Positions 3,563-49,912 of a DNA stretch of 64,000 nucleotides are shown piece by piece. Position numbers and translations under genes: made by a program. Source of the stretch: Elusimicrobium minutum Pei191 (lineage in GTDB: Bacteria; Elusimicrobiota; Elusimicrobia; Elusimicrobiales; Elusimicrobiaceae); the NCBI RefSeq assembly GCF_000020145.1, contig NC_010644.1, positions 558,001 through 622,000 of the forward strand, in the 5' to 3' direction. The notes below the pieces were generated by a model, which saw nothing but the letters and a program-made list of their open reading frames with translations, searched no databases and had not been told where the DNA came from. Position 1 is the first letter of the stretch; every line of letters starts with the position of its first letter.

Positions 3563-4235
3563 TTTCTTCTTTTGCGGGGCGGTCAATTATTAAAACAAAT
3601 TCGCCCAAAATTTTATTTTTCTTGTTAAGCGCCGCTATAATTTCGCTTACCGGGCCTCTTAGCCATTCCTCATAAACTTTTGTAAGTTCTCTTGCCGCTA
3701 TTATCGGTGTTTGGGGGCCCAAAACACCGGAAATAATTTCTAAAAGTTTAACTATCCGGTATGGGGATTCGTAAATGACAATCGGTTTTTCAAGCTCATA
3801 AGCCGCGGCAATAAGTTTAGAAATTTTCCCCGTTTTTCTTGGCATAAAACCTAAAAATGTAAAAGCGCCGCCCGTTATACCGGCGCCTGACAGCGCGCAG
3901 GTTAAAGCGCTTGGTCCCGGCAGCGGCACCACCTTAATTCCTTTGGACAGACATTCTTTTACAAGCTTCCACCCCGGGTCTGAAATACAAGGTGTTCCGC
4001 CGTCGCATACAAGGGCGCAGTTTTTATGCATAGCCATATTTAAGCAGTGGCTGACGCTGTGCGGGTCATTTTCATTGTAACGTATTAAAGGTTTATCAAT
4101 TAAGAAATGCGAAAGAAGTGTTTTAGACCTTCTTGTATCTTCGGCGAAAACGACGTCAACGGTTTTAAGCGTTTCTAACGCGCGTAGTGTAATGTCGGCT
4201 AAATTGCCTATGGGGGTTGGAACAATATATAACAT
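3540..4235 (-). CDS. rsmI: 16S rRNA (cytidine-1402-2'-O)-methyltransferase
   Basis: SAM-dependent 2'-O-methylation of C1402 in the decoding centre. The start MLYIVPTPIGNLADIT is diagnostic, followed by FAEDTRRSKTLL, CDGGTPCISDPG and LPGPSALTCALS (tetrapyrrole-methylase fold) and IYESPYRI. At 231 aa it is about 50 residues shorter than the E. coli enzyme and lacks most of the C-terminal RsmI extension. First gene of the rsmI-tsaC-kinase operon. A TATATT lies 13 nt before the ATG and no Shine-Dalgarno is visible, so the transcript may be almost leaderless. Confidence 0.93.
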   Translation of the reverse strand: MLYIVPTPIGNLADITLRALETLKTVDVVFAEDTRRSKTLLSHFLIDKPLIRYNENDPHSVSHCLNMAMHKNCALVCDGGTPCISDPGWKLVKECLSKGIKVVPLPGPSALTCALSGAGITGGAFTFLGFMPRKTGKISKLIAAAYELEKPIVIYESPYRIVKLLEIISGVLGPQTPIIAARELTKVYEEWLRGPVSEIIAALNKKNKILGEFVLIIDRPAKEENDEDADF

Positions 4236-4253
4236 ATATACTAATATACAAAA

Positions 4254-16650: not shown

Positions 16651-17124
16651 TTAAAACTTTATTTTATTTTTAAAATCTTTTTCCATTTCTCTTGATAAAT
16701 CACGCTTTTTAATAGCGTCTCTTTTATCAAAAAGTTGTTTGCCTTTGCCAAGCCCCACTTTTATTTTAGCCCAGCCGTTTTTAAAATATACTTCCAAAGG
16801 GATAATAGTGTGTCCTTTAATTTCCGCGTGGCCTTTAAGTTTGTTTATTTCTTTTTTGTTAAGCAACAGCCTTCTTTGGCGTAAAGGTTCAACCTCGGTA
16901 ACGGTATTATATTTGTAAGGGTTGATATGCATATTAAAGACATAGGCCTGCATGCCTTCAATACGCACAAAAGCGCCGTCCAGGCTTACTTCCTTTTTCC
17001 GTATGGATTTAACCTCGCTGCCTAAAAGTTCTATACCCGCTTCATAAGTATCCAAGATATGATAGTTGTGATAAGCTTTGCGGTTTGTAGCGGCCACCAA
17101 AGGCCCGTTGTCTTTTTTTGCCAT
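16651..17124 (-). CDS. smpB: SsrA-binding protein SmpB
   Basis: Binds tmRNA and delivers it to stalled ribosomes. 157 aa, usual length. Motifs are NRKAYHNYHILDTYEAGIEL, GSEVKSIRKKEVSL, MHINPY, RRLLLNKKEI, PLEVYFKNGWAK and a basic tail. The start MAKKDNG at 17124 gives the family N-terminus; the frame stays open to 17292 but that extension is not SmpB-like. TAAAAT lies 11 nt before this ATG without a Shine-Dalgarno, so the transcript may be leaderless. Divergent from the DtxR-type regulator. Confidence 0.95.
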   Translation of the reverse strand: MAKKDNGPLVAATNRKAYHNYHILDTYEAGIELLGSEVKSIRKKEVSLDGAFVRIEGMQAYVFNMHINPYKYNTVTEVEPLRQRRLLLNKKEINKLKGHAEIKGHTIIPLEVYFKNGWAKIKVGLGKGKQLFDKRDAIKKRDLSREMEKDFKNKIKF

Positions 17125-17167: not shown

Positions 17168-17202
17168 TTGACAAAACTTAAAAAGTTAGGTTTACTGAAC
17201 TT
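17168..17202 (+). promoter_or_regulatory. promoter and candidate DtxR-type operator of the regulator gene
   Basis: TTGACA at 17168-17173, 17 bp, then TTTACT at 17191-17196. An imperfect dyad AAGTTAGGTTTACTGAACTT (17183-17202) lies over the -10 and start site. Its left half, AAGTTAGGTTTA, is identical over 12 bases to the operator-like site at 19865-19854 on the minus strand, and TTAGGTT resembles the DtxR/IdeR half-site. Suggests autoregulation. Confidence 0.5.
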
Positions 17203-17625
17203 ATGAACAAAGAAAATCTTATTAATAAAGAACATCTTACAATGAGTATGGAAGATTATTTGGAAGCCATTTCGATAGCTTCCAAACAGCACGGCGTAGC
17301 CAGGGTAAAGGACATAAGGGATTTAATGAATGTTAAAACCCCCAGTGTTACAGGCGCGCTTACGGTGCTTGCTAAAATGGGTTATGTATTGCATGAAAAA
17401 TACGGTTATGTGGAGCTTACTCCAAAAGGTGTAAAAGCGGCCGATGAAGTTAAACAGCGCCATGTTCTTTTAACGCAGTTTTTAACGGATATTTTGGGCG
17501 TTTCGCAAAGCGCCGCGGATATTGACGCTTGCAAAATGGAGCACGTTATCAGCAAAGAAACTTTTGACAAACTTACCAATTTTGTAAAAAAACAAAAAGC
17601 CGCGGTTAAGAAAAAAGCTAAATGA
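17203..17625 (+). CDS. DtxR/MntR-family metal-dependent transcriptional regulator
   Basis: 140 aa. Winged-helix domain starting LTMSMEDYLEAI, then ARVKDIRDLMNVKTPSVTGAL as the recognition helix, followed by the dimerisation domain RHVLLTQFLTDILGV and CKMEHVIS. The D and E of MEDYLE, the His of RH and the E and H of MEH match MntR/DtxR metal ligands. No SH3-like third domain, so it is MntR-sized. Expected to repress when iron or manganese is plentiful. The predicted transcription start coincides with the ATG and there is no Shine-Dalgarno, so it may be leaderless; starts at 17242 or 17248 would cut the conserved N-terminus. Confidence 0.88.
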   Translation: MNKENLINKEHLTMSMEDYLEAISIASKQHGVARVKDIRDLMNVKTPSVTGALTVLAKMGYVLHEKYGYVELTPKGVKAADEVKQRHVLLTQFLTDILGVSQSAADIDACKMEHVISKETFDKLTNFVKKQKAAVKKKAK

Positions 17626-22199: not shown

Positions 22200-22211
22200 T
22201 ATAATATTTGC
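22200..22211 (+). promoter_or_regulatory. leaderless-type promoter
   Basis: TATAAT at 22200-22205 starts exactly 12 nt before the ATG at 22212, so transcription would begin at or next to the start codon. No Shine-Dalgarno is present. Confidence 0.55.
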
Positions 22212-22673
22212 ATGAATAAAAAGTTAGTTATTTTAATTTCCTTATTAATCTTTTCTTTCGCTTGCACCGGCCTTCAGGAAAACTACAATATGGTCAAGTG
22301 CAAGTACGACCTTGTTAAGGTGGAACCTGCGGATTTTAATATAAACACAATCAGCATGAATGTGGCTATTTCAATCCAAAACACAAGCAGGACGACGGCT
22401 GCAGCTATTAAAAGGTTTGACGGCAACTTTTATGTAAACGATAACAGCGTGTCTGAAATCGTTTTTAAGGATGTGCGCGTTGAACCGGGCGAAACAAAAA
22501 CCGCGAAATCTACTTTAGAAATACCTATTAATAAATTGGGTAAAACGTTAACCGGTCTTGTAAGCATGGGCAGCGTTTCAGTGGATTACCAGGTAAGGGG
22601 TACAATGTATTTTGAAACGCCCCTTGGCGACATCCCGTTTCCTGTTACTATTTACCAAAGCAAAAAATTTTAA
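22212..22673 (+). CDS. LEA14-like (WHy-type) lipoprotein
   Basis: 153 aa. MNKKLVILISLLIFSFAC is a lipoprotein signal (SFAC in place of a strict lipobox). The mature part resembles the water-stress/hypersensitive-response LEA type 2 fold: KYDLVKVEPADFNINTISMNVAISIQN, a long beta strand with N-T-S-R, then FYVNDN, EPGETKTAKSTLEIP and a closing YFETPLGDIPFPV strand. Such proteins in bacteria are envelope-associated and mostly uncharacterised. Monocistronic between pepT (divergent) and hydC, with its own terminator. Confidence 0.8.
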   Translation: MNKKLVILISLLIFSFACTGLQENYNMVKCKYDLVKVEPADFNINTISMNVAISIQNTSRTTAAAIKRFDGNFYVNDNSVSEIVFKDVRVEPGETKTAKSTLEIPINKLGKTLTGLVSMGSVSVDYQVRGTMYFETPLGDIPFPVTIYQSKKF

Positions 22674-30142: not shown

Positions 30143-31744
30143 ATGAAGAAACGAGGATTCACCTTAATAGAAATAGCTGTAGTAGTTTTAGTAATAGCTA
30201 TTTTAGCTGCGGCAGCTTTGCCGCAGTACAGAAAGTCGTTAGAACGCTCAAGAGCTGCCGAAGCTTTTGACATCCTTACAGAGATAAGGAATAAACAAGA
30301 AGCCAGGGATTTACTTGGCACGGGGACGGCCAAAGGCTATACTGTAAAGTTTAGCGATTTGGGGGAAGTAATAGCGGGTAAAAATTCCACAACAAACACA
30401 TTAGACACAAGCCTGTTTACTTATACGCTTTCAAATAACCCATATCCGCAGGCATATGCCAAAAGGAAGGATATGGATTATTCGATAGTTCAGACAAAGG
30501 GGTATCAAGACAGTGCGTTATGTTGTTTGGGAAGGGATTGTAAAGTTGTAGACAGCGTTTTAAAAGGGTGTGAGAAGACAGCGTGCCTTACAACATGCGC
30601 AACGGGATATAAAAAAACGGGGTACTTTTTTTCGGAGGACGGGCCTTGCTGTGAAGCAAAAACGTCGTGTCCGACAACATGTCCCGCAGGGCAGCAGAGA
30701 ACAAGTGCACAATATAGCGAAGACGGAGCGTGTTGCGTATCAAAAACGTCGTGTCCCGCAACATGTCCTACGGGGCAGAAGAGGACAAGCGTACAATATT
30801 ATGAAGACGGAGCTTGTTGCACGGGTAAAACAGCCTGTCCTACAACGTGTCCTACAGGCCAGCAGAGGACAAGCGTACAATATAGTGAAGATGGAGCCTG
30901 CTGCGTAACAAAAACAGCGTGTCCTGCCACATGTCCCACAGGTCAGGAAAGAACATCCATGCAATACAGTGAAGACGGAGCGTGCTGTCAGTCAAAATCT
31001 TGCGGTAGCGGACAAACCCTTGTAGGCGGGGTATGTAAAACAGCGTGTCCCGCAACATGCCCTTCCGGTCAGGAAAGAACCTCAAGCGGGTATTCTGAAG
31101 ACGGCGTTTGTTGCCAAACAAAAACATGTACCACTGGTCAGACGCTTGTTAACGGAGTATGTAAAACAGCGTGTCCCGCAACATGCCCCTCCGGTCAGGA
31201 AAGAACCTCAAGCGGATATTCTGAGGACGGAGCGTGCTGTAAAACAAAATCATGTCCTTCTGGCCAATATTTAACAAACGGTATATGCTGTCTTAACGCA
31301 CAGGTGTCTAAAGACGGTAAAACATGTATATATCTTTATAAACCCGAGGTTATTAAAGTGGGTATACTGGTTGACTGTCATAACAATTACAGCTTTGTAG
31401 ATAAAAAGAAAACACAATGTTACAGGACTGGGGCCCCCAGATACTTTGAGGGGGGGAAATTGCCGTACGTAGCCGCAGGCGGCGGATGCACCGCTCATTA
31501 TTCATACTATAATGGCGGTAATTGGTGGGAAGGCGGAATAGCGCACGGTACGCCGTCAGACTGTAATAACAGTATTTCCGACCAACAGGCTTGCGATAAT
31601 AACTGCAAAGGCGCGACATGTTCCTTTAAATGTATTAAAACCAAGTCTTACGGGGACAGGTGCGGCACATATAAATGTTCCAACGGTATGCATTGCGATA
31701 ATGCGGAAGGTTCGGGTACTATGCTAAGGTGTGTAAGGAAATAA
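30143..31744 (+). CDS. modular prepilin with seven four-Cys repeats and a distinct head
   Basis: 533 aa. MKKRGFTLIEIAVVVLVIAIL again gives the prepilin leader and Glu5. Residues up to about 146 are nearly identical to the paralogue at 27831. Seven four-Cys repeats follow (about 147-369), the last three separated by GQTLV.GVCKT spacers. The C-terminal domain (about 370-533) is unrelated to that of its neighbour: Cys-, Gly- and Tyr-rich, with GGNWWEGGIAHG, DNNCKGATCSFKC and a closing Cys-rich knot. AACGGAAAGG precedes the ATG. The common base with different heads suggests alternative pilus-tip adhesins. Extracellular, disulfide-stabilised; needs prepilin peptidase (not in the window). Confidence 0.85.
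   Translation: MKKRGFTLIEIAVVVLVIAILAAAALPQYRKSLERSRAAEAFDILTEIRNKQEARDLLGTGTAKGYTVKFSDLGEVIAGKNSTTNTLDTSLFTYTLSNNPYPQAYAKRKDMDYSIVQTKGYQDSALCCLGRDCKVVDSVLKGCEKTACLTTCATGYKKTGYFFSEDGPCCEAKTSCPTTCPAGQQRTSAQYSEDGACCVSKTSCPATCPTGQKRTSVQYYEDGACCTGKTACPTTCPTGQQRTSVQYSEDGACCVTKTACPATCPTGQERTSMQYSEDGACCQSKSCGSGQTLVGGVCKTACPATCPSGQERTSSGYSEDGVCCQTKTCTTGQTLVNGVCKTACPATCPSGQERTSSGYSEDGACCKTKSCPSGQYLTNGICCLNAQVSKDGKTCIYLYKPEVIKVGILVDCHNNYSFVDKKKTQCYRTGAPRYFEGGKLPYVAAGGGCTAHYSYYNGGNWWEGGIAHGTPSDCNNSISDQQACDNNCKGATCSFKCIKTKSYGDRCGTYKCSNGMHCDNAEGSGTMLRCVRK
30581..31249 (+). repeat. array of about 84-bp coding repeats (7 units)
   Basis: Same unit as 28266-29450. Units 1-4 are contiguous, units 5-7 are spaced by 45-bp spacers. 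Several units are nearly identical to units of the upstream gene at nucleotide level, consistent with recent duplication or ongoing exchange. Confidence 0.92.
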
Positions 31745-31959: not shown

Positions 31960-31971
31960 TATAATAATACC
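31960..31971 (+). promoter_or_regulatory. leaderless-type promoter
   Basis: TATAAT at 31960-31965, first T exactly 12 nt before the ATG at 31972; no Shine-Dalgarno. Confidence 0.55.
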
Positions 31972-32121
31972 ATGGAAAATAATAAAACAGGCACCTATAA
32001 ATATGACGCCAAAACAGGTAAAGTTATAAAAATTTCTTCCGATATTCCTAAAAAGAATAATACTGAAGAAGGCTTTTCCTGCCCGCACGCGCATGTTTGC
32101 GGCTCGCATTGTAAGCATTAA
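31972..32121 (+). CDS. 49-aa Cys/His-rich small protein
   Basis: Too short for routine gene calling. Translated, it is hydrophilic (KTGTYKYDAKTGKVIKIS) and ends with a dense metal-site motif CPHAHVCGSHCKH: three Cys and four His within 13 residues. The spacing resembles small zinc or copper binding modules, but I recognise no family. Support: a clean ATG, a consensus -10 box 12 nt upstream, no rare codons, and the next gene starting six bases after its stop, so it heads the operon with the membrane protein at 32127. Confidence 0.65.
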   Translation: MENNKTGTYKYDAKTGKVIKISSDIPKKNNTEEGFSCPHAHVCGSHCKH

Positions 32122-39791: not shown

Positions 39792-39827
39792 ATGGCTTTA
39801 GGCCTTACTGTAATAAGCTATTTATGA
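39792..39827 (+). CDS. 11-residue leader ORF coupled to rpsA
   Basis: ATG with GGAGG ten bases upstream encodes MALGLTVISYL, and its stop overlaps the rpsA ATG as ATGA. rpsA itself has no Shine-Dalgarno, so ribosomes probably load here and re-initiate. May take part in autogenous control of S1. Confidence 0.55.
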   Translation: MALGLTVISYL

Positions 39828-41023
39828 CCAACGCAGAAGAAAATAAAATTGATTCAAAGCAAGAAGCAATTCAAGTTGAGGCGGCGCCCGAGCAGGAAAT
39901 GACGATGGACCAGCTTTTTGCCGAGCAGGAAGAATTAGTAAACAAACTTAATAAAAGGGAAATAGTGCAAGTTACCGTAGTGCAGGTTGGTAAGGATAGC
40001 GTGCTCGTTGACACGGGCGACAAGAAGGAAGGATACATTCCTTTATCTGATTTTGAGGGAAAAGCCGTTCCTGAAGCGGGGGAAAAGGTTTCCGCGGTAT
40101 TAGTTAAAAAAGGTTCTGATGAAAGACACGCTGTTTTATCTTTCAAAAAAGCCCAGGAATATTTGGGTTGGGAAATAGCCAAAAAAGCTTTTGATAATAA
40201 AGAAAGAGTGCGCGGTACAATAGTGTCTTGCGTAAAGGGCGGTTATATTGTTGACGTTTTCGGCGTTAGCGGTTTTATGCCTTTATCTCTTTCAGAACTT
40301 CATACGGCCTACAAGCATTATCTTCCCGCAGGCGCCAAGGTAAAATGCGTTGTGGTTGAATTTTCCAAAGAAAAAAACAAACTTATAGTTTCACGCAAAC
40401 AGGTTTTGGAAGAAGATGAAGCCGTAAGAAGAGACGGCGTTTTAGCCCAGGTAAAAGAGGGTGAAGTTTTAAGAGTTGTTGTCGCCAAAGCCGATAAAGA
40501 CAAACTTTATTTACGCTTCCACGGCATTGAAGGCGTTGTTACTTTAGATAACGTAGCCTGGCAAGACACTGAAAAAGCGATTACTTCTTTTAGAAGAGGG
40601 CAAAGACTTAAAGCTAAATTACTTAAAATTGATAAAGAAACAGGTAAACTTGAATTTGGCTTAAAACAGCTTTTCTTAAACCCGGCTGACGCTTTAAGAA
40701 GGAAATTCCCTTATAAAAGCACAACAAAAGGCAAAATTGTTGCTATTACCGAAGAAGGCGTTGAAGTTTCTTTAGGTAAAAATAATACAAAAGGTTTTAT
40801 AAGCCAATTTGAAATGGGCAGAGATTTTGATGGTAATGTTGACGACGTTATTAACGTTATGGTTATCGGCATTAATCCGGATGACTGCAGCGTCAACTTA
40901 TCAGTTAAAAAGTATGACCAGGTTCAAAACAAAAAATTTGTTGCCCAGTATATGAAGCAAGCCCCCAGACCCACTTTGGGACAGCTTTTGCAAGACTCGT
41001 TGGAAGAATCTGAAAATAAATAA
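39824..41023 (+). CDS. rpsA: 30S ribosomal protein S1
   Basis: 399 aa with an acidic N-terminal segment (MTMDQLFAEQEELVNKL) and four S1 domains at about 40-115, 130-200, 212-285 and 298-370; each shows the beta-barrel pattern (e.g. GKDSVLVDTGDKKEGYIPL, VKGGYIVDVFGVSGFMPLS). Shorter than the six-domain E. coli protein, within the range of other phyla. It binds mRNA leaders. A longer frame to 39758 overlaps plsC and is not S1-like. The 11-codon ORF just upstream appears to supply its ribosomes. Confidence 0.93.
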   Translation: MTNAEENKIDSKQEAIQVEAAPEQEMTMDQLFAEQEELVNKLNKREIVQVTVVQVGKDSVLVDTGDKKEGYIPLSDFEGKAVPEAGEKVSAVLVKKGSDERHAVLSFKKAQEYLGWEIAKKAFDNKERVRGTIVSCVKGGYIVDVFGVSGFMPLSLSELHTAYKHYLPAGAKVKCVVVEFSKEKNKLIVSRKQVLEEDEAVRRDGVLAQVKEGEVLRVVVAKADKDKLYLRFHGIEGVVTLDNVAWQDTEKAITSFRRGQRLKAKLLKIDKETGKLEFGLKQLFLNPADALRRKFPYKSTTKGKIVAITEEGVEVSLGKNNTKGFISQFEMGRDFDGNVDDVINVMVIGINPDDCSVNLSVKKYDQVQNKKFVAQYMKQAPRPTLGQLLQDSLEESENK

Positions 41024-45845: not shown

Positions 45846-47396
45846 TTAAGCTATCACCTTATGCTCTTGCAGCATTTCTTTTGCGTTTTTAAATACTTCA
45901 TCAACGCTTATGTCATTCATGCATTTGAAATGGCCGGCAGGGCATCTTTTACCCCCGTGTAAAGCGCACGGGCGGCATTTAAGGTCCTTTACCTCAATAA
46001 CTCTGTGTCCTTTACCATAAGGGAAAAAGCCCAATTCTTTTGTTGTGGGGCCGAATATGGCAAGCGTGGGAACGCTGTAAGCCGTTGCTATATGCATTGG
46101 ACCTGAATCGTTTGTAATAAAAAGTTTAAAGTTAGGCATTAAAGACATGAGGTCTGTTAAACTGGTTTTACCGGCTAAATTAGCTGTTGTGCCTTTAGAT
46201 ACGCGGCGTATCCTTTCGCCCAGTTCGCTGTCTTTCGCGCCGCCTACTAAAACGCAGGTCACGCTAAGCTCGTTTTGCAGTTTGCTTATAAGCTCGGTAA
46301 ACTTTTCCTCGGGCCAGCATTTTGTGGCCCAGGCTGAACCGGGGTGAATACCTATAAGGGTTTTGCCTTCAAGGTGGTATTCCTTCATAAGTCTTGCTAT
46401 ATTTTCAGCGGGAGTAGGAACCGATTTAAGGTTAAGTTCCTCGGCCTGAAAATTTTCCTTAACAATGCCGTGAAGCAGGTTTAAGTTGCGTTCCGCGTCG
46501 TGAATCATCCATGAGAAAGGCACGGTTTTGGTATATAAAAACCAACCTTCGCTTGAGGAAAACCCTATTCTTATAGGAACTTTGCTTAACCAGGCTATTA
46601 AGGCGCTTCTGAAACTTCTGTGCGGAACCAAAAGTATATCAATGCCGCTTTGTTTAATTTCTTTGGCTGTTTTAAAAATACCTGTTATTTTTTTAAGCCC
46701 CTTCTTTTCATTTAAAATAATTTGGGAAACTTCCGGCATGTGTTTAAAAATTGATTCGGTTTCCGGGCGTGTGATAACAACTATTTTTGCGTCAGGAAAC
46801 ATTTTTGCCGTTTTGGATACAAGCGGCGTTGTTAAAACGCTGTCACCTATAAAGGAAGTTTGGAATATGCCTATTTTTCTTATTTTCTTTTTATCCGCAG
46901 CGCCGTCTGAAGTGTTGTAACACCAATCGCCCAGCTGGGGTTCTTTATAAATTATGGGTACGTCCCAAGAGGTTAAAGCGTCAAGATATTTTTCCAAAGT
47001 ATGCTTTTCAAGTTCGGGGCTTTGGCGGCGGTATTTAACAAACATTCGCCTTGCCACGGAGCTTTTGTTGTATTTAACTTTGTTGGGTATGCCGGATAAA
47101 GCTGTTATTATTATGCTTCTAGAATTGGAGTGCAGGTCAAGTAAGTGGGTAAAGTTCCTGCTTTTAATTTCATGCACCGTTTCTAAATTTGTTCTCTTTA
47201 AGGTAAGGATTTCATCTATATCCGGATGGCAGGAAAGCACGTCGGCAAATTGTTTTTTTACAAGCAATGTTATATGGCAGTTTGGCCATTTTGCTTTAAG
47301 GTTTTTGTATACCGGGGAGGAAAGAACTATATCGCCTAAAGAAGAAAGTCTTATAACTAAAATCTTAGGGGACTTTTCCGAATTTTCATTGTTCAT
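45846..47396 (-). CDS. GT9 heptosyltransferase-family protein with an extra N-terminal domain
   Basis: 516 aa against about 350 for a normal ADP-heptose transferase. Residues 11-165 are a GT9-like N-terminal Rossmann domain (ILVIRLSSLGDIVLSSP) without its catalytic partner. Residues 172-510 are a complete GT9: IGIFQTSFIGDSVLTTP, GIHPGSAWATKCWP (sugar-nucleotide site), TNDSGPMHIA, ending in a Cys cluster (LKCRPCALHGGKRCP). Acts on LPS core at the inner membrane. Overlaps kdtA by 11 bp, so core assembly genes are co-transcribed. Confidence 0.88.
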   Translation of the reverse strand: MNNENSEKSPKILVIRLSSLGDIVLSSPVYKNLKAKWPNCHITLLVKKQFADVLSCHPDIDEILTLKRTNLETVHEIKSRNFTHLLDLHSNSRSIIITALSGIPNKVKYNKSSVARRMFVKYRRQSPELEKHTLEKYLDALTSWDVPIIYKEPQLGDWCYNTSDGAADKKKIRKIGIFQTSFIGDSVLTTPLVSKTAKMFPDAKIVVITRPETESIFKHMPEVSQIILNEKKGLKKITGIFKTAKEIKQSGIDILLVPHRSFRSALIAWLSKVPIRIGFSSSEGWFLYTKTVPFSWMIHDAERNLNLLHGIVKENFQAEELNLKSVPTPAENIARLMKEYHLEGKTLIGIHPGSAWATKCWPEEKFTELISKLQNELSVTCVLVGGAKDSELGERIRRVSKGTTANLAGKTSLTDLMSLMPNFKLFITNDSGPMHIATAYSVPTLAIFGPTTKELGFFPYGKGHRVIEVKDLKCRPCALHGGKRCPAGHFKCMNDISVDEVFKNAKEMLQEHKVIA

Positions 47397-48657
47397 ACTT
47401 TTTTATTAACTCCATTATTTTTCCGGTCGCACCTTGGAAAGAGACTGCGGTTTTCTTGGCTGCTGCTGACATTCCGCTAATTTTCTGCTTATCCTTAGAT
47501 AAACCGGTAATCACTTCTGCAAAATTGTTTTTGTTAACGCTTATACCGCCGTTATTTTTAATAAGTTCTTCCGCCGTGTCGGGCGTATTATAAACATAAG
47601 GGCCGAATATCACGGGCTTGGCTAAAATAGCGGGTTCAAGTAAATTGTGTCCGCCTTTTTTGGCTATTGTGCCGCCTACAAAAGCTATATCTCCCGCGTT
47701 ATAAAACGAAGTAAGCCAACCCATTGAGTCTGCAAACAAAATTTCCGGATCTTTAATATTTAAAGGATGGCTTGAAATGGTAGAGCTTACTTTGTTTCTA
47801 TTAAGGTCCTGGATGATGGCCGATTTCCTTTCCAAATGTCTGGGGGCTATAACTATGCGTATGTTTTCTTTATAAAGTTGTTTGGCGCAGGCCATAAGCA
47901 TAGATTCTTCCTCAATATGCGTGCTGCCGCAGACTAAAACGGTTTTGCCTTCCCAGCCGAGCTTTTTAAATAAATCTTTAACTTCTTCTGTACGGGGGGG
48001 ATTGGTTTTAAGGCTATCATACTTAACGTTGCCTGGCACGAAGGCGGTTTCCGCTCTAAGGCCTAAGGAAAGATACCTTTGTTTAATTTCCTCGCTCTGC
48101 AAAGCGGCAAAGGAAACATTTTTAAAAATTAAACTGAAAAGAGAATAAAGCAGACGGTATTTTTTTGCGCTTCTTTCAGACATACGTCCGTTTATTATGC
48201 AAACGGGTACGCCGTTATTTATGCAGGCCATAATATTGTTGGGCCAGGTTTCGCCCTCCACAATAAACATGCGGTGCGGTTTAACCAAACGTACGAATTT
48301 ACGGGTAAAAGGATAAAAATCAAAAGGAAGTAAAAGCGCGTTATCCACATGAGGGTTTTTAAAAGCGGCTGTTCTGCCCGCCCAGGTGTTTGTTGTTACT
48401 AAAACGGGTTTTTGGTACAGATCTTTAAGCTGGGGTATAAGGCCCGCCATGGAATTTACTTCGCCTACGCTGGCGCAATGTATCCAGATAGGGTTAGTTA
48501 AAAGTTCAGTATACGGGTATAATACAAAACGTTCCCGCAATTCTTCTTTTAATTTTTTTAGGAGTTTTCTTCTGGGAGATAGGAAAAAAAATATAAGCAC
48601 GGCAAGCGCGCCTATAGGGGAAAGACAATTTATAATAAACAGCAAAAAGTAGCCCAT
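47386..48657 (-). CDS. kdtA: 3-deoxy-D-manno-octulosonic acid transferase (KdtA/WaaA)
   Basis: Adds KDO to the lipid A precursor. 423 aa. N-terminal membrane anchor (YFLLFIINCLSPIGALAVLIF), WIHCASVGEVNS with the catalytic Glu, VEGETWPNN, CGSTHIEEE, APRHLERK and GGHNLLEPA. TATAAT at 48669-48664 starts 12 nt before the ATG and there is no Shine-Dalgarno, so the mRNA is probably leaderless. First gene of kdtA-GT9. Demonstrates an LPS-bearing outer membrane. Confidence 0.94.
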   Translation of the reverse strand: MGYFLLFIINCLSPIGALAVLIFFFLSPRRKLLKKLKEELRERFVLYPYTELLTNPIWIHCASVGEVNSMAGLIPQLKDLYQKPVLVTTNTWAGRTAAFKNPHVDNALLLPFDFYPFTRKFVRLVKPHRMFIVEGETWPNNIMACINNGVPVCIINGRMSERSAKKYRLLYSLFSLIFKNVSFAALQSEEIKQRYLSLGLRAETAFVPGNVKYDSLKTNPPRTEEVKDLFKKLGWEGKTVLVCGSTHIEEESMLMACAKQLYKENIRIVIAPRHLERKSAIIQDLNRNKVSSTISSHPLNIKDPEILFADSMGWLTSFYNAGDIAFVGGTIAKKGGHNLLEPAILAKPVIFGPYVYNTPDTAEELIKNNGGISVNKNNFAEVITGLSKDKQKISGMSAAAKKTAVSFQGATGKIMELIKKYEQ

Positions 48658-49141: not shown

Positions 49142-49900
49142 TTATCCTTTATTAAAAATCGAGAAGATATTTTTTTTATCTTTTGGAGAGTTTTTTGTCT
49201 GTTGCGTAATTACACCTATTAAAATATTTTTTTCGTTAATTACGGGCAGCTCCGTTAAAGAACTGTTGTGTAAAATTTCTAAAGCTTGTTCGGCTTTTTC
49301 ACCGGGATTTGTTTTGTCAAAATCTGTTTGCATTATTGAGCCTGCCATAGCTTCCTGCTGGTAAAAAACCAAATCTATTGTTCTTATTACCCCTGCCAGC
49401 CTGCCTGACTTATCCAAAACATAGGTTTGCATGGGAACTTTTTTGCGAGGCATATTTTTAAATTTTTTGACTATTGATTCTACGGAGGAATCTGTTTTAA
49501 AAACAGTAAAATCACTTGTCATTATCTCTCCCGCGCTGCCTTTAGGATAGCTGAGCGCGTCCTTAAGTTCCTGGGCGAAAGCCTTTGGTAATTCATTTTC
49601 AATTTTAGATTTGTGGTGCGGCGGCAATGCTGCAAGCGCGCGCGCGGCAAAGTTTATGTTAAAAGAACTTGTTATATGGGCAGCTTGTTTCAAAGGCAGT
49701 CTGCGCAAAATAGGCGCGGCTTTTGCCGGCTCCATATTTTCAAGAACAATGGTTATATGCTGGGCCTTAAGGCCGCTTAAAAACTGCAGCGTTTCATGCG
49801 TGGCAAGCGTTTCAAAAAACTTAGCTGCCTGTTCCGGAGCCGCGGCAATAAATTTTTCAGCCATATTTAAAGTAACTTGTTCTTTTGCCTGTATGTACAT
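49142..49900 (-). CDS. MgtE-like N-domain plus CBS-pair protein lacking the channel
   Basis: 252 aa. Residues about 12-125 are the helical MgtE N superhelix (repeated LPLKQAAHITSS, LAALPPHH patterns). Residues about 130-240 are two CBS domains (GEIMTSDFTVFKTDSSVESI; GSIMQTDFDKTNPGEKAEQAL, LPVINEKNILIGVITQ). No membrane helices follow, unlike the Mg2+ channel MgtE, so this is a cytosolic regulator or a remnant. It ends cleanly with its own stop before dut. Leaderless-type promoter: TATAAT starts 12 nt before the ATG. Confidence 0.82.
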   Translation of the reverse strand: MYIQAKEQVTLNMAEKFIAAAPEQAAKFFETLATHETLQFLSGLKAQHITIVLENMEPAKAAPILRRLPLKQAAHITSSFNINFAARALAALPPHHKSKIENELPKAFAQELKDALSYPKGSAGEIMTSDFTVFKTDSSVESIVKKFKNMPRKKVPMQTYVLDKSGRLAGVIRTIDLVFYQQEAMAGSIMQTDFDKTNPGEKAEQALEILHNSSLTELPVINEKNILIGVITQQTKNSPKDKKNIFSIFNKG

Positions 49901-49912
49901 GTTTTTATTATA
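49901..49912 (-). promoter_or_regulatory. leaderless-type promoter of the MgtE-like/dut operon
   Basis: Minus-strand TATAAT (49912-49907), first T 12 nt before the ATG at 49900; AAAAAC spacer, no Shine-Dalgarno. Confidence 0.55.

What the first reader, a model, noticed from the sequence alone, without database searches (positions are those of the whole stretch)
31960..31974. Consensus -10 box exactly 12 nt before ATG at four genes: leaderless mRNAs
Seen: TATAAT starts 12 nt before ATG at 22212(+), 31972(+), 48657(-) and 49900(-), each without a Shine-Dalgarno; smpB (11 nt), rsmI (13 nt) and the DtxR-type gene (12 nt, TTTACT) are near cases. Four exact matches among roughly 60 starts is far above chance for a fixed hexamer. 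Known: leaderless transcripts start at or next to ATG, with the -10 about this distance upstream. Inferred: a leaderless class exists in this organism.
Basis: partly seen in the sequence, partly recalled or inferred. Interest (0 to 1): 0.6.

Follow-up and report, generated by a model that had tools for sequence, protein, structure and literature searches.

The report
Promoters abutting start codons: leaderless genes
In this bacterium and its relatives about one gene in twenty has its promoter so close to the start codon that the messenger RNA must begin at, or within a few bases of, the first codon; genes of this kind are known from other bacteria, and here they are found through a little-studied class.

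Summary
TATAAT-N6-ATG occurs four times in the window, at the stated places, all at called gene starts. Over 751 starts called without looking upstream (half the genome), TATAAT begins 17 times at -12 and 7 times at -13, against about 2 per position elsewhere; ATGs inside genes show no peak. Nearly all of the excess is at genes that can head a transcript. The peak recurs clearly in four of five relatives, weakly in the fifth. Across 149 genomes of the phylum, TGnTATAAT-N6-ATG beats a spacing control 11-fold in the family, about 3-fold in the rest of the order and class, 1.1- to 1.3-fold outside the class. At waaA, 12 of 12 orthologues from two genera keep TATAAT 12-15 nt before ATG although sequence 10-40 bases further up is at chance identity; 0 of 18 from other genera have it. 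The focal 49-codon ORF is a conserved gene and keeps the element in 4 of 5 checkable relatives. Best reading: sigma-70-type promoters whose transcripts begin at or within a few bases of the start codon, a known kind (Zheng 2011). I found no description for Elusimicrobiota in the held library. No transcript 5' end was measured, and the missing Shine-Dalgarno is not independent evidence.

The parts
31960..31965 (+). -10 hexamer TATAAT, 6-nt discriminator, then ATG at 31972 (focal case)
   Evidence: orthologue ATG coordinates coincide with TGnTATAAT-N6-ATG in G013, G015, G017, G023, not in G009
31972..32121 (+). leaderless 49-codon gene, Cys/His-rich C-terminus, family unnamed
   Evidence: match in 33 of 40 genomes, own included; no Pfam or NCBIfam match at E 0.001
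22200..22205 (+). -10 hexamer TATAAT at -12 of the gene at 22212
22212..22673 (+). leaderless gene, LEA_2-domain protein, 153 aa (lipoprotein-like N-terminus, by eye)
   Evidence: PF03168
48664..48669 (-). -10 hexamer TATAAT at -12 of waaA
   Evidence: exact TATAAT at -12 to -15 in 12 of 12 orthologues of two genera, 0 of 18 of others
47386..48657 (-). leaderless gene waaA/kdtA (Kdo transferase), 423 aa
   Evidence: PF04413; NCBIfam matches below their cut-offs
49907..49912 (-). -10 hexamer TATAAT at -12 of the gene at 49900
49142..49900 (-). leaderless gene, MgtE_N plus CBS domains, 252 aa; first of the run MgtE_N-CBS / dUTPase / waaA / glycosyltransferase
   Evidence: order
4243..4248 (-). 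near case: TATATT at -13 of rsmI (ATG at 4235); the same-genus orthologue in G001 has TATAAT at -12
   Evidence: TIGR00096
17130..17135 (-). near case: TAAAAT at -11 of smpB (ATG at 17124)
17168..17196 (+). near case: TTGACA, 17-bp spacer, TTTACT at -12 of the DtxR-type gene (ATG at 17203)
   Evidence: sequence; family

Best explanation
These are sigma-70-type promoters, often with an extended -10 (TGn) and with a weak -35 or none, placed so that the -10 hexamer covers -12 to -7 relative to the A of ATG. With a 6-nt discriminator RNA polymerase starts at that A (pyrimidine at -1, A at +1); with 7 nt it starts there or one base before. The mRNA is leaderless or nearly so (0-3 nt), cannot carry a Shine-Dalgarno, and is read by the ribosome recognising the 5'-terminal AUG with initiator tRNA. 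The class covers roughly 3-7% of genes in the six Elusimicrobiales genomes sampled, almost all at heads of transcription units in the own genome. Shown: motif, fixed position, link to operon heads, conservation. Inferred: transcription start and mode of translation.
For: Peak of TATAAT at -12/-13 over 751 starts: 17 and 7, against 2.16 per position at -50..-20; P about 2e-10 for -12. 10,932 ATGs inside genes: no peak (3 at -12, mean 6.7 at -30..-16). Operon heads 23 of 410 (background 1.87 per position), internal 1 of 330 (background 0.23). Against 75 other genes with an A/T-only hexamer at -12..-7, the 44 candidates have more heads (41 of 44 vs 47 of 75), more TGn (15 of 44 vs 5 of 75; 3 of 47 among head controls) and more pyrimidine at -1 (41 of 44 vs 50 of 75; 35 of 47 among head controls). 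Peak in relatives. Pattern counts in 149 genomes. waaA: 12 of 12, with 25-27% identity in the bases 10-40 upstream of the hexamer. Orthologue test: candidates 7 of 12 keep a -10 at -11..-14, other heads 11 of 69, internal genes 3 of 110. Start codons supported by conserved N-termini in waaA and rplU.
Against: No transcript 5' ends. SD absence is not independent: 2 of 47 A/T-hexamer head controls have an SD, like 1 of 41 candidate heads. By background about 4 of the 24 exact and 8 of the 20 one-mismatch candidates are chance. -35 little above shuffles: 25 of 122 with at most 2 mismatches against 13%. G008 shows no exact peak at -12 (2 at -12, 3 at -13, also 3 at -17; background 0.74), only a one-mismatch one (8 and 6, background 2.8), and in G008 and G035 only 3 of 5 and 1 of 3 exact cases start with ATG. 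Only G001 gives a significant orthologue result on its own. rplU also has a distal TATAAT or TATTAT, so it may be made in leadered form too. Three of 44 candidates sit inside apparent operons, aspS among them. Four of the 18 waaA loci without TATAAT show no long ORF just upstream either, so a head without this element is possible there.
Confidence: 0.92

Rival explanations
1. The A/T-rich hexamer is a translation signal (an AU-rich, S1-type standby site in place of a Shine-Dalgarno) on leadered mRNAs, not a promoter.
For: SD-less starts are common: 425 of 751 lack the core. An S1-like protein exists at about window 39824-41023. A/T-only hexamers occur at the same place in 75 other genes.
Against: The exact hexamer at a fixed distance is almost only at transcript heads (23 of 410 vs 1 of 330). 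TGn enrichment is a promoter feature. waaA lacks it in the 14 loci where a long ORF ends at or just before its ATG, where a translation signal would still be needed.
Confidence: 0.04
2. Real promoters, but the true translation start lies downstream, so the mRNA has a short leader and the ATG is not used.
For: Starts were chosen by coding score alone; a few genes may be miscalled. Two waaA orthologues have the hexamer at -15, so 0-3 nt leaders are likely.
Against: waaA and rplU orthologues begin at the same Met with conserved N-termini. A fixed -12 spacing to a non-start ATG would not be expected; internal ATGs show no peak.
Confidence: 0.03
3. Chance in an A+T-rich genome.
For: TATAAT is frequent (113 in the window); genome-wide TATAATN6ATG is only 62 against 40 for the reversed pattern.
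Against: Start-anchored peak, P about 2e-10; peak also in genomes of 47% and 50% G+C and, with small counts, 52% and 63%; orthologue conservation.
Confidence: 0.01

Closest known systems
TA-led (leaderless) genes of Zheng et al. 2011 (PMC3160421)
   Same: TAtaaT-like signal about 12 bp before the start codon, TG peak before it in several low-GC genomes, minority of genes (passages and section 7 seen).
   Different: 'elusimicrob' and 'termite' do not occur in the main text; the row 'Other Bacteria' (8 of 20 genomes) is not broken down. Supplement not seen.
-10-motif adjacent to ORFs in Deinococcus-Thermus (PMC12340547)
   Same: -10 motif 6-7 bp before the ORF, taken as promoter of leaderless mRNA (outline with short abstract, and section 7 seen).
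   Different: There nearly one-third of genes of D. radiodurans and TANNNT, most often TACACT; here about 5% and close to TATAAT.
Leaderless transcriptome of Mycobacterium tuberculosis (PMC3898074)
   Same: Title reports an extensive leaderless transcriptome (listing and start of abstract seen); -10 placed next to the start codon is recalled.

Membership tests
Leaderless (TA-led) genes | sigma-70 -10-like hexamer about 12 nt before the start codon, above chance | tested here: met
Leaderless (TA-led) genes | no Shine-Dalgarno upstream | tested here: met
   1 of 44 has the core; true but not independent of the hexamer
Leaderless (TA-led) genes | gene heads a transcription unit | tested here: met
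   41 of 44 by gap over 40 bp or divergence; 23 of 410 vs 1 of 330. Operons inferred from gaps only
Leaderless (TA-led) genes | transcript 5' end at or within a few nt of the start codon | not testable with these tools
   no RNA data; geometry only
Leaderless (TA-led) genes | translation from the 5'-terminal AUG | not testable with these tools
   inference
Deinococcus-type -10-motif | present in about a third of genes | tested here: not met
   about 4-7% in five of six genomes, 3% in G008 (my arithmetic, at most one mismatch)

The most novel reading that the evidence does not exclude
The leaderless class in Elusimicrobia works as a coordinated group: its candidates hold both fmt and def, which make and remove the formyl group of the initiator methionine, beside tRNA and ribosome genes (mnmA, miaA, rplU; near cases smpB, rsmI). 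Its translation could then respond to initiator-tRNA formylation and feed back on it. Membership of single genes turns over within a family (rplU, waaA), so natural pairs exist to test it. fmt and def are one-mismatch candidates (TAAAAT behind TG), so their own membership is less sure.
Probability: 0.08. Interest if true: 0.65.

Novelty: new member of a known kind. Interest (0 to 1): 0.36.

Why it matters
It places a leaderless class in a bacterial class for which I found no such report in the held library, shows how far it reaches in the phylum, and gives sets of orthologous genes with and without the start-abutting promoter. It also warns that start prediction that leans on Shine-Dalgarno sites may misplace these starts, and that short genes such as the 49-codon ORF gain support from the signal.

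Tried and rejected
Shine-Dalgarno absence as independent evidence: dropped after the A/T-hexamer control. T at -1 alone: dropped, since 192 of 325 SD genes have it too; pyrimidine at -1 kept. A -35 rule: no clear enrichment. rplU as the clean example: dropped, since all 17 loci with the proximal -10 also hold a distal TATAAT or TATTAT. Rfam for the rplU region: 13 of 30 loci searched (11 leadered, 2 not), nothing reached a gathering score. A first orthologue test by reciprocal best hits with the same called start gave 5 of 8 candidates against 5 of 67 others in G001, and in the other four genomes no candidate pair that kept it (0 of 0, 0 of 1, 0 of 2, 0 of 0); one search loosened it. Naming the organism by a genome-contig scan with waaA: no relative found; Elusimicrobium minutum Pei191 rests on recall of the genome length 1,643,562. 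Function enrichment of the class was not tested: 20 proteins were scanned for names, 19 of the 44 candidates plus smpB (three again in 60); all 20 have an NCBIfam match, several below the family's cut-off; the four window genes were scanned.

Full report
What is there. TATAAT followed by six bases and ATG occurs four times in the window, at the stated places. Shuffled sequence gives 0.86 on average. All four ATGs are gene starts according to a coding-potential caller that I wrote to ignore everything upstream of the start. The genes encode an LEA_2-domain protein (22212), a 49-residue protein (31972), the Kdo transferase WaaA (48657) and an MgtE_N-CBS protein (49900). The window is G000:C1:558001-622000 of a 1,643,562-base genome; from that length I recall Elusimicrobium minutum, which no call confirms.

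Is it more than chance? I took 39 evenly spaced 20-kb stretches of the same genome; with the window this is 844 kb, 786 called genes, 751 usable starts (starts cut off by a stretch end or with under 60 bases upstream were dropped). TATAAT begins 17 times at -12 and 7 times at -13; the other positions from -45 to -4 hold 0 to 6, mean 2.16 at -50..-20. Leaving the window out, 13 and 7 of 691 starts. The 10,932 ATGs inside genes show no peak. Nearly all the excess is at genes that can head a transcript: 23 of 410 (background 1.87 per position), against 1 of 330 internal genes (background 0.23).

What goes with it. I kept 44 candidates: 24 exact at -12/-13 and 20 with one mismatch at -12. From the background about 12 of these are chance. 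All 44 start with ATG, and 1 has a Shine-Dalgarno core against 325 of 707 other genes. That last contrast is largely mechanical: genes with any other A/T-only hexamer at the same place lack it as well (heads: 2 of 47 against 1 of 41). Three things survive that control: heads 41 of 44 against 47 of 75, TGn before the hexamer 15 of 44 against 5 of 75, and pyrimidine at -1 in 41 of 44 against 50 of 75. A -35 box is weak or missing (25 of 122 against 13% in shuffles, six genomes), though the DtxR-type gene has a perfect TTGACA 17 bp from its TTTACT.

How far it reaches. I ran the same caller on 169 to 369 starts from each of five relatives. Exact TATAAT at -13/-12 is 0/15 (G001), 2/8 (G015), 3/2 (G008), 1/2 (G035, G+C 63%) and 1/3 (G026), against backgrounds of 0.84, 0.87, 0.74, 0.39 and 0.03 per position; with one mismatch allowed it is 3/28, 8/19, 6/8, 6/10 and 5/4 against 3.2, 2.9, 2.8, 1.3 and 0.7. 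So G001 and G015 are clear, G035 and G026 clear with small counts, G008 weak. With one mismatch allowed and background removed, the class is about 4% of starts in G000 and 3 to 7% in the others (my arithmetic). Counting TGnTATAAT-N6-ATG in 149 genomes of the phylum, against the same with N10 and against the reversed pattern: own family 558, 49, 28 (43 genomes); the other family of the order 114, 33, 6 (14); rest of the class 50, 18, 1 (14); family f10 227, 171, 57 (51; N6 above N10 in 26 genomes, below in 14); other families 112, 102, 39 (27). The reversed pattern is the poorer control, since N10 exceeds it too in most groups. So the class is strong in the family, clear in the order and class, doubtful in f10, and not seen in the rest. 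This search sees only the extended, exact form, and stretches from outside the order could not be fetched.

Conservation at single genes. waaA matched in 40 of 40 genomes and the 30 best loci were fetched. All 12 from the genera g1 and g6 have TATAAT, starting at -12 (4), -13 (6) or -15 (2). The bases 10-40 upstream of the hexamer have 25-27% mean identity, the 10 next to it 58-67%, the discriminator 42%. None of the 18 from other genera has TATAAT within 70 bases; in 14 of those a same-strand open frame of over 200 codons ends within 30 bases of the ATG, in 4 it does not; in two of the 18 (L090, L093) the aligned first codon is not a start codon. The focal 49-codon ORF has a match in 33 of 40 genomes, own included. 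The list of places was cut; among the genomes it lists, five have a match to this protein, and in G013, G015, G017 and G023 its ATG is the ATG of a TGnTATAAT-N6-ATG, in G009 it is not. A wider test on the stretches held: 7 of 12 orthologues of candidates keep a -10 at -11..-14, 11 of 69 orthologues of other heads, 3 of 110 of internal genes; p = 0.004, carried by G001 (6 of 8 against 6 of 30) (alignments starting after residue 4, under 35% identity, without a start codon or with under 60 bases upstream were dropped). Candidates whose G001 orthologue lacks it, such as a lolC/E-type gene, show turnover or chance members.

rplU (L21) is the caution. Of the 30 loci fetched from 145 genomes with a match, 17 have a -10-like hexamer at -12 (one at -15) behind TGn, 10 of them exact TATAAT; 13 do not. 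All 17 also have a distal TATAAT or TATTAT about 98-115 bp up, and the 13 have a TATAAT at -52 to -93 before a leader that by eye looks structured. On a tree of these loci the label changes at least 3 times, 2 forced by well-supported branches. rplU may thus be made from two promoters.

Mechanism. A sigma-70-type -10 covers -12 to -7 relative to the transcription start (established knowledge). A hexamer at -12 of ATG puts the start on the A; one at -13 or -15 gives at most a few bases of leader. Such an mRNA has no room for a Shine-Dalgarno and would be read from its 5'-terminal AUG. Transcription start and translation mode are inferred.

Known or new. The kind is known: Zheng et al. 2011 report TA-like signals about 12 bp before starts, leaderless genes in 207 of 953 bacterial genomes, and a TG peak in several low-GC ones (PMC3160421, passages and section 7). 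PMC12340547 treats such motifs in Deinococcus-Thermus (outline and section 7). Elusimicrobia are not named in the main text of the former, whose 'Other Bacteria' row is not broken down, so the genome may be in its supplement. Searches for Elusimicrobia with leaderless, with Shine-Dalgarno, and for E. minutum with promoter and transcription start gave 2, 5 and 1 papers; none of the listed titles or abstract starts describes this; of these I opened only PMC10783764, for passages, where the name stands in a table of anti-SD types. Hence a new member of a known kind.

Noticed in passing
L140-L169, about 120 bases upstream of rplU: rplU of the family has leaders that by eye look structured behind a distal TATAAT; some lineages have a second -10 right before ATG, others do not. 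No Rfam family reached its gathering score (13 of 30 loci searched). May be an undescribed L21 leader.
   Followed up: partly
window 31972-32121 (+): A 49-codon protein with a Cys/His-rich C-terminus has matches in 33 of 40 genomes over two families of the order, without a Pfam or NCBIfam name.
   Followed up: partly
candidate list (L049 fmt, L054 def, L059 miaA, L033 mnmA and rplU): Translation and tRNA genes, fmt and def among them, seem frequent in the class, whereas Zheng 2011 found translation genes less often leaderless. Not tested for enrichment.
   Followed up: no
window 39824-41023 (+): S1-domain protein (rpsA model, E 1.9e-58, 197 bits, below the cut-off of 577, which only 2 of 14 control genomes pass) of about 399 aa, shorter than the 516-position model.
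   Followed up: no
window 30143-31744 (+): Pilin-like N-terminus followed by many Cys-rich repeats of the type CPxTCPxGQ (read by eye from the translation).
   Followed up: no
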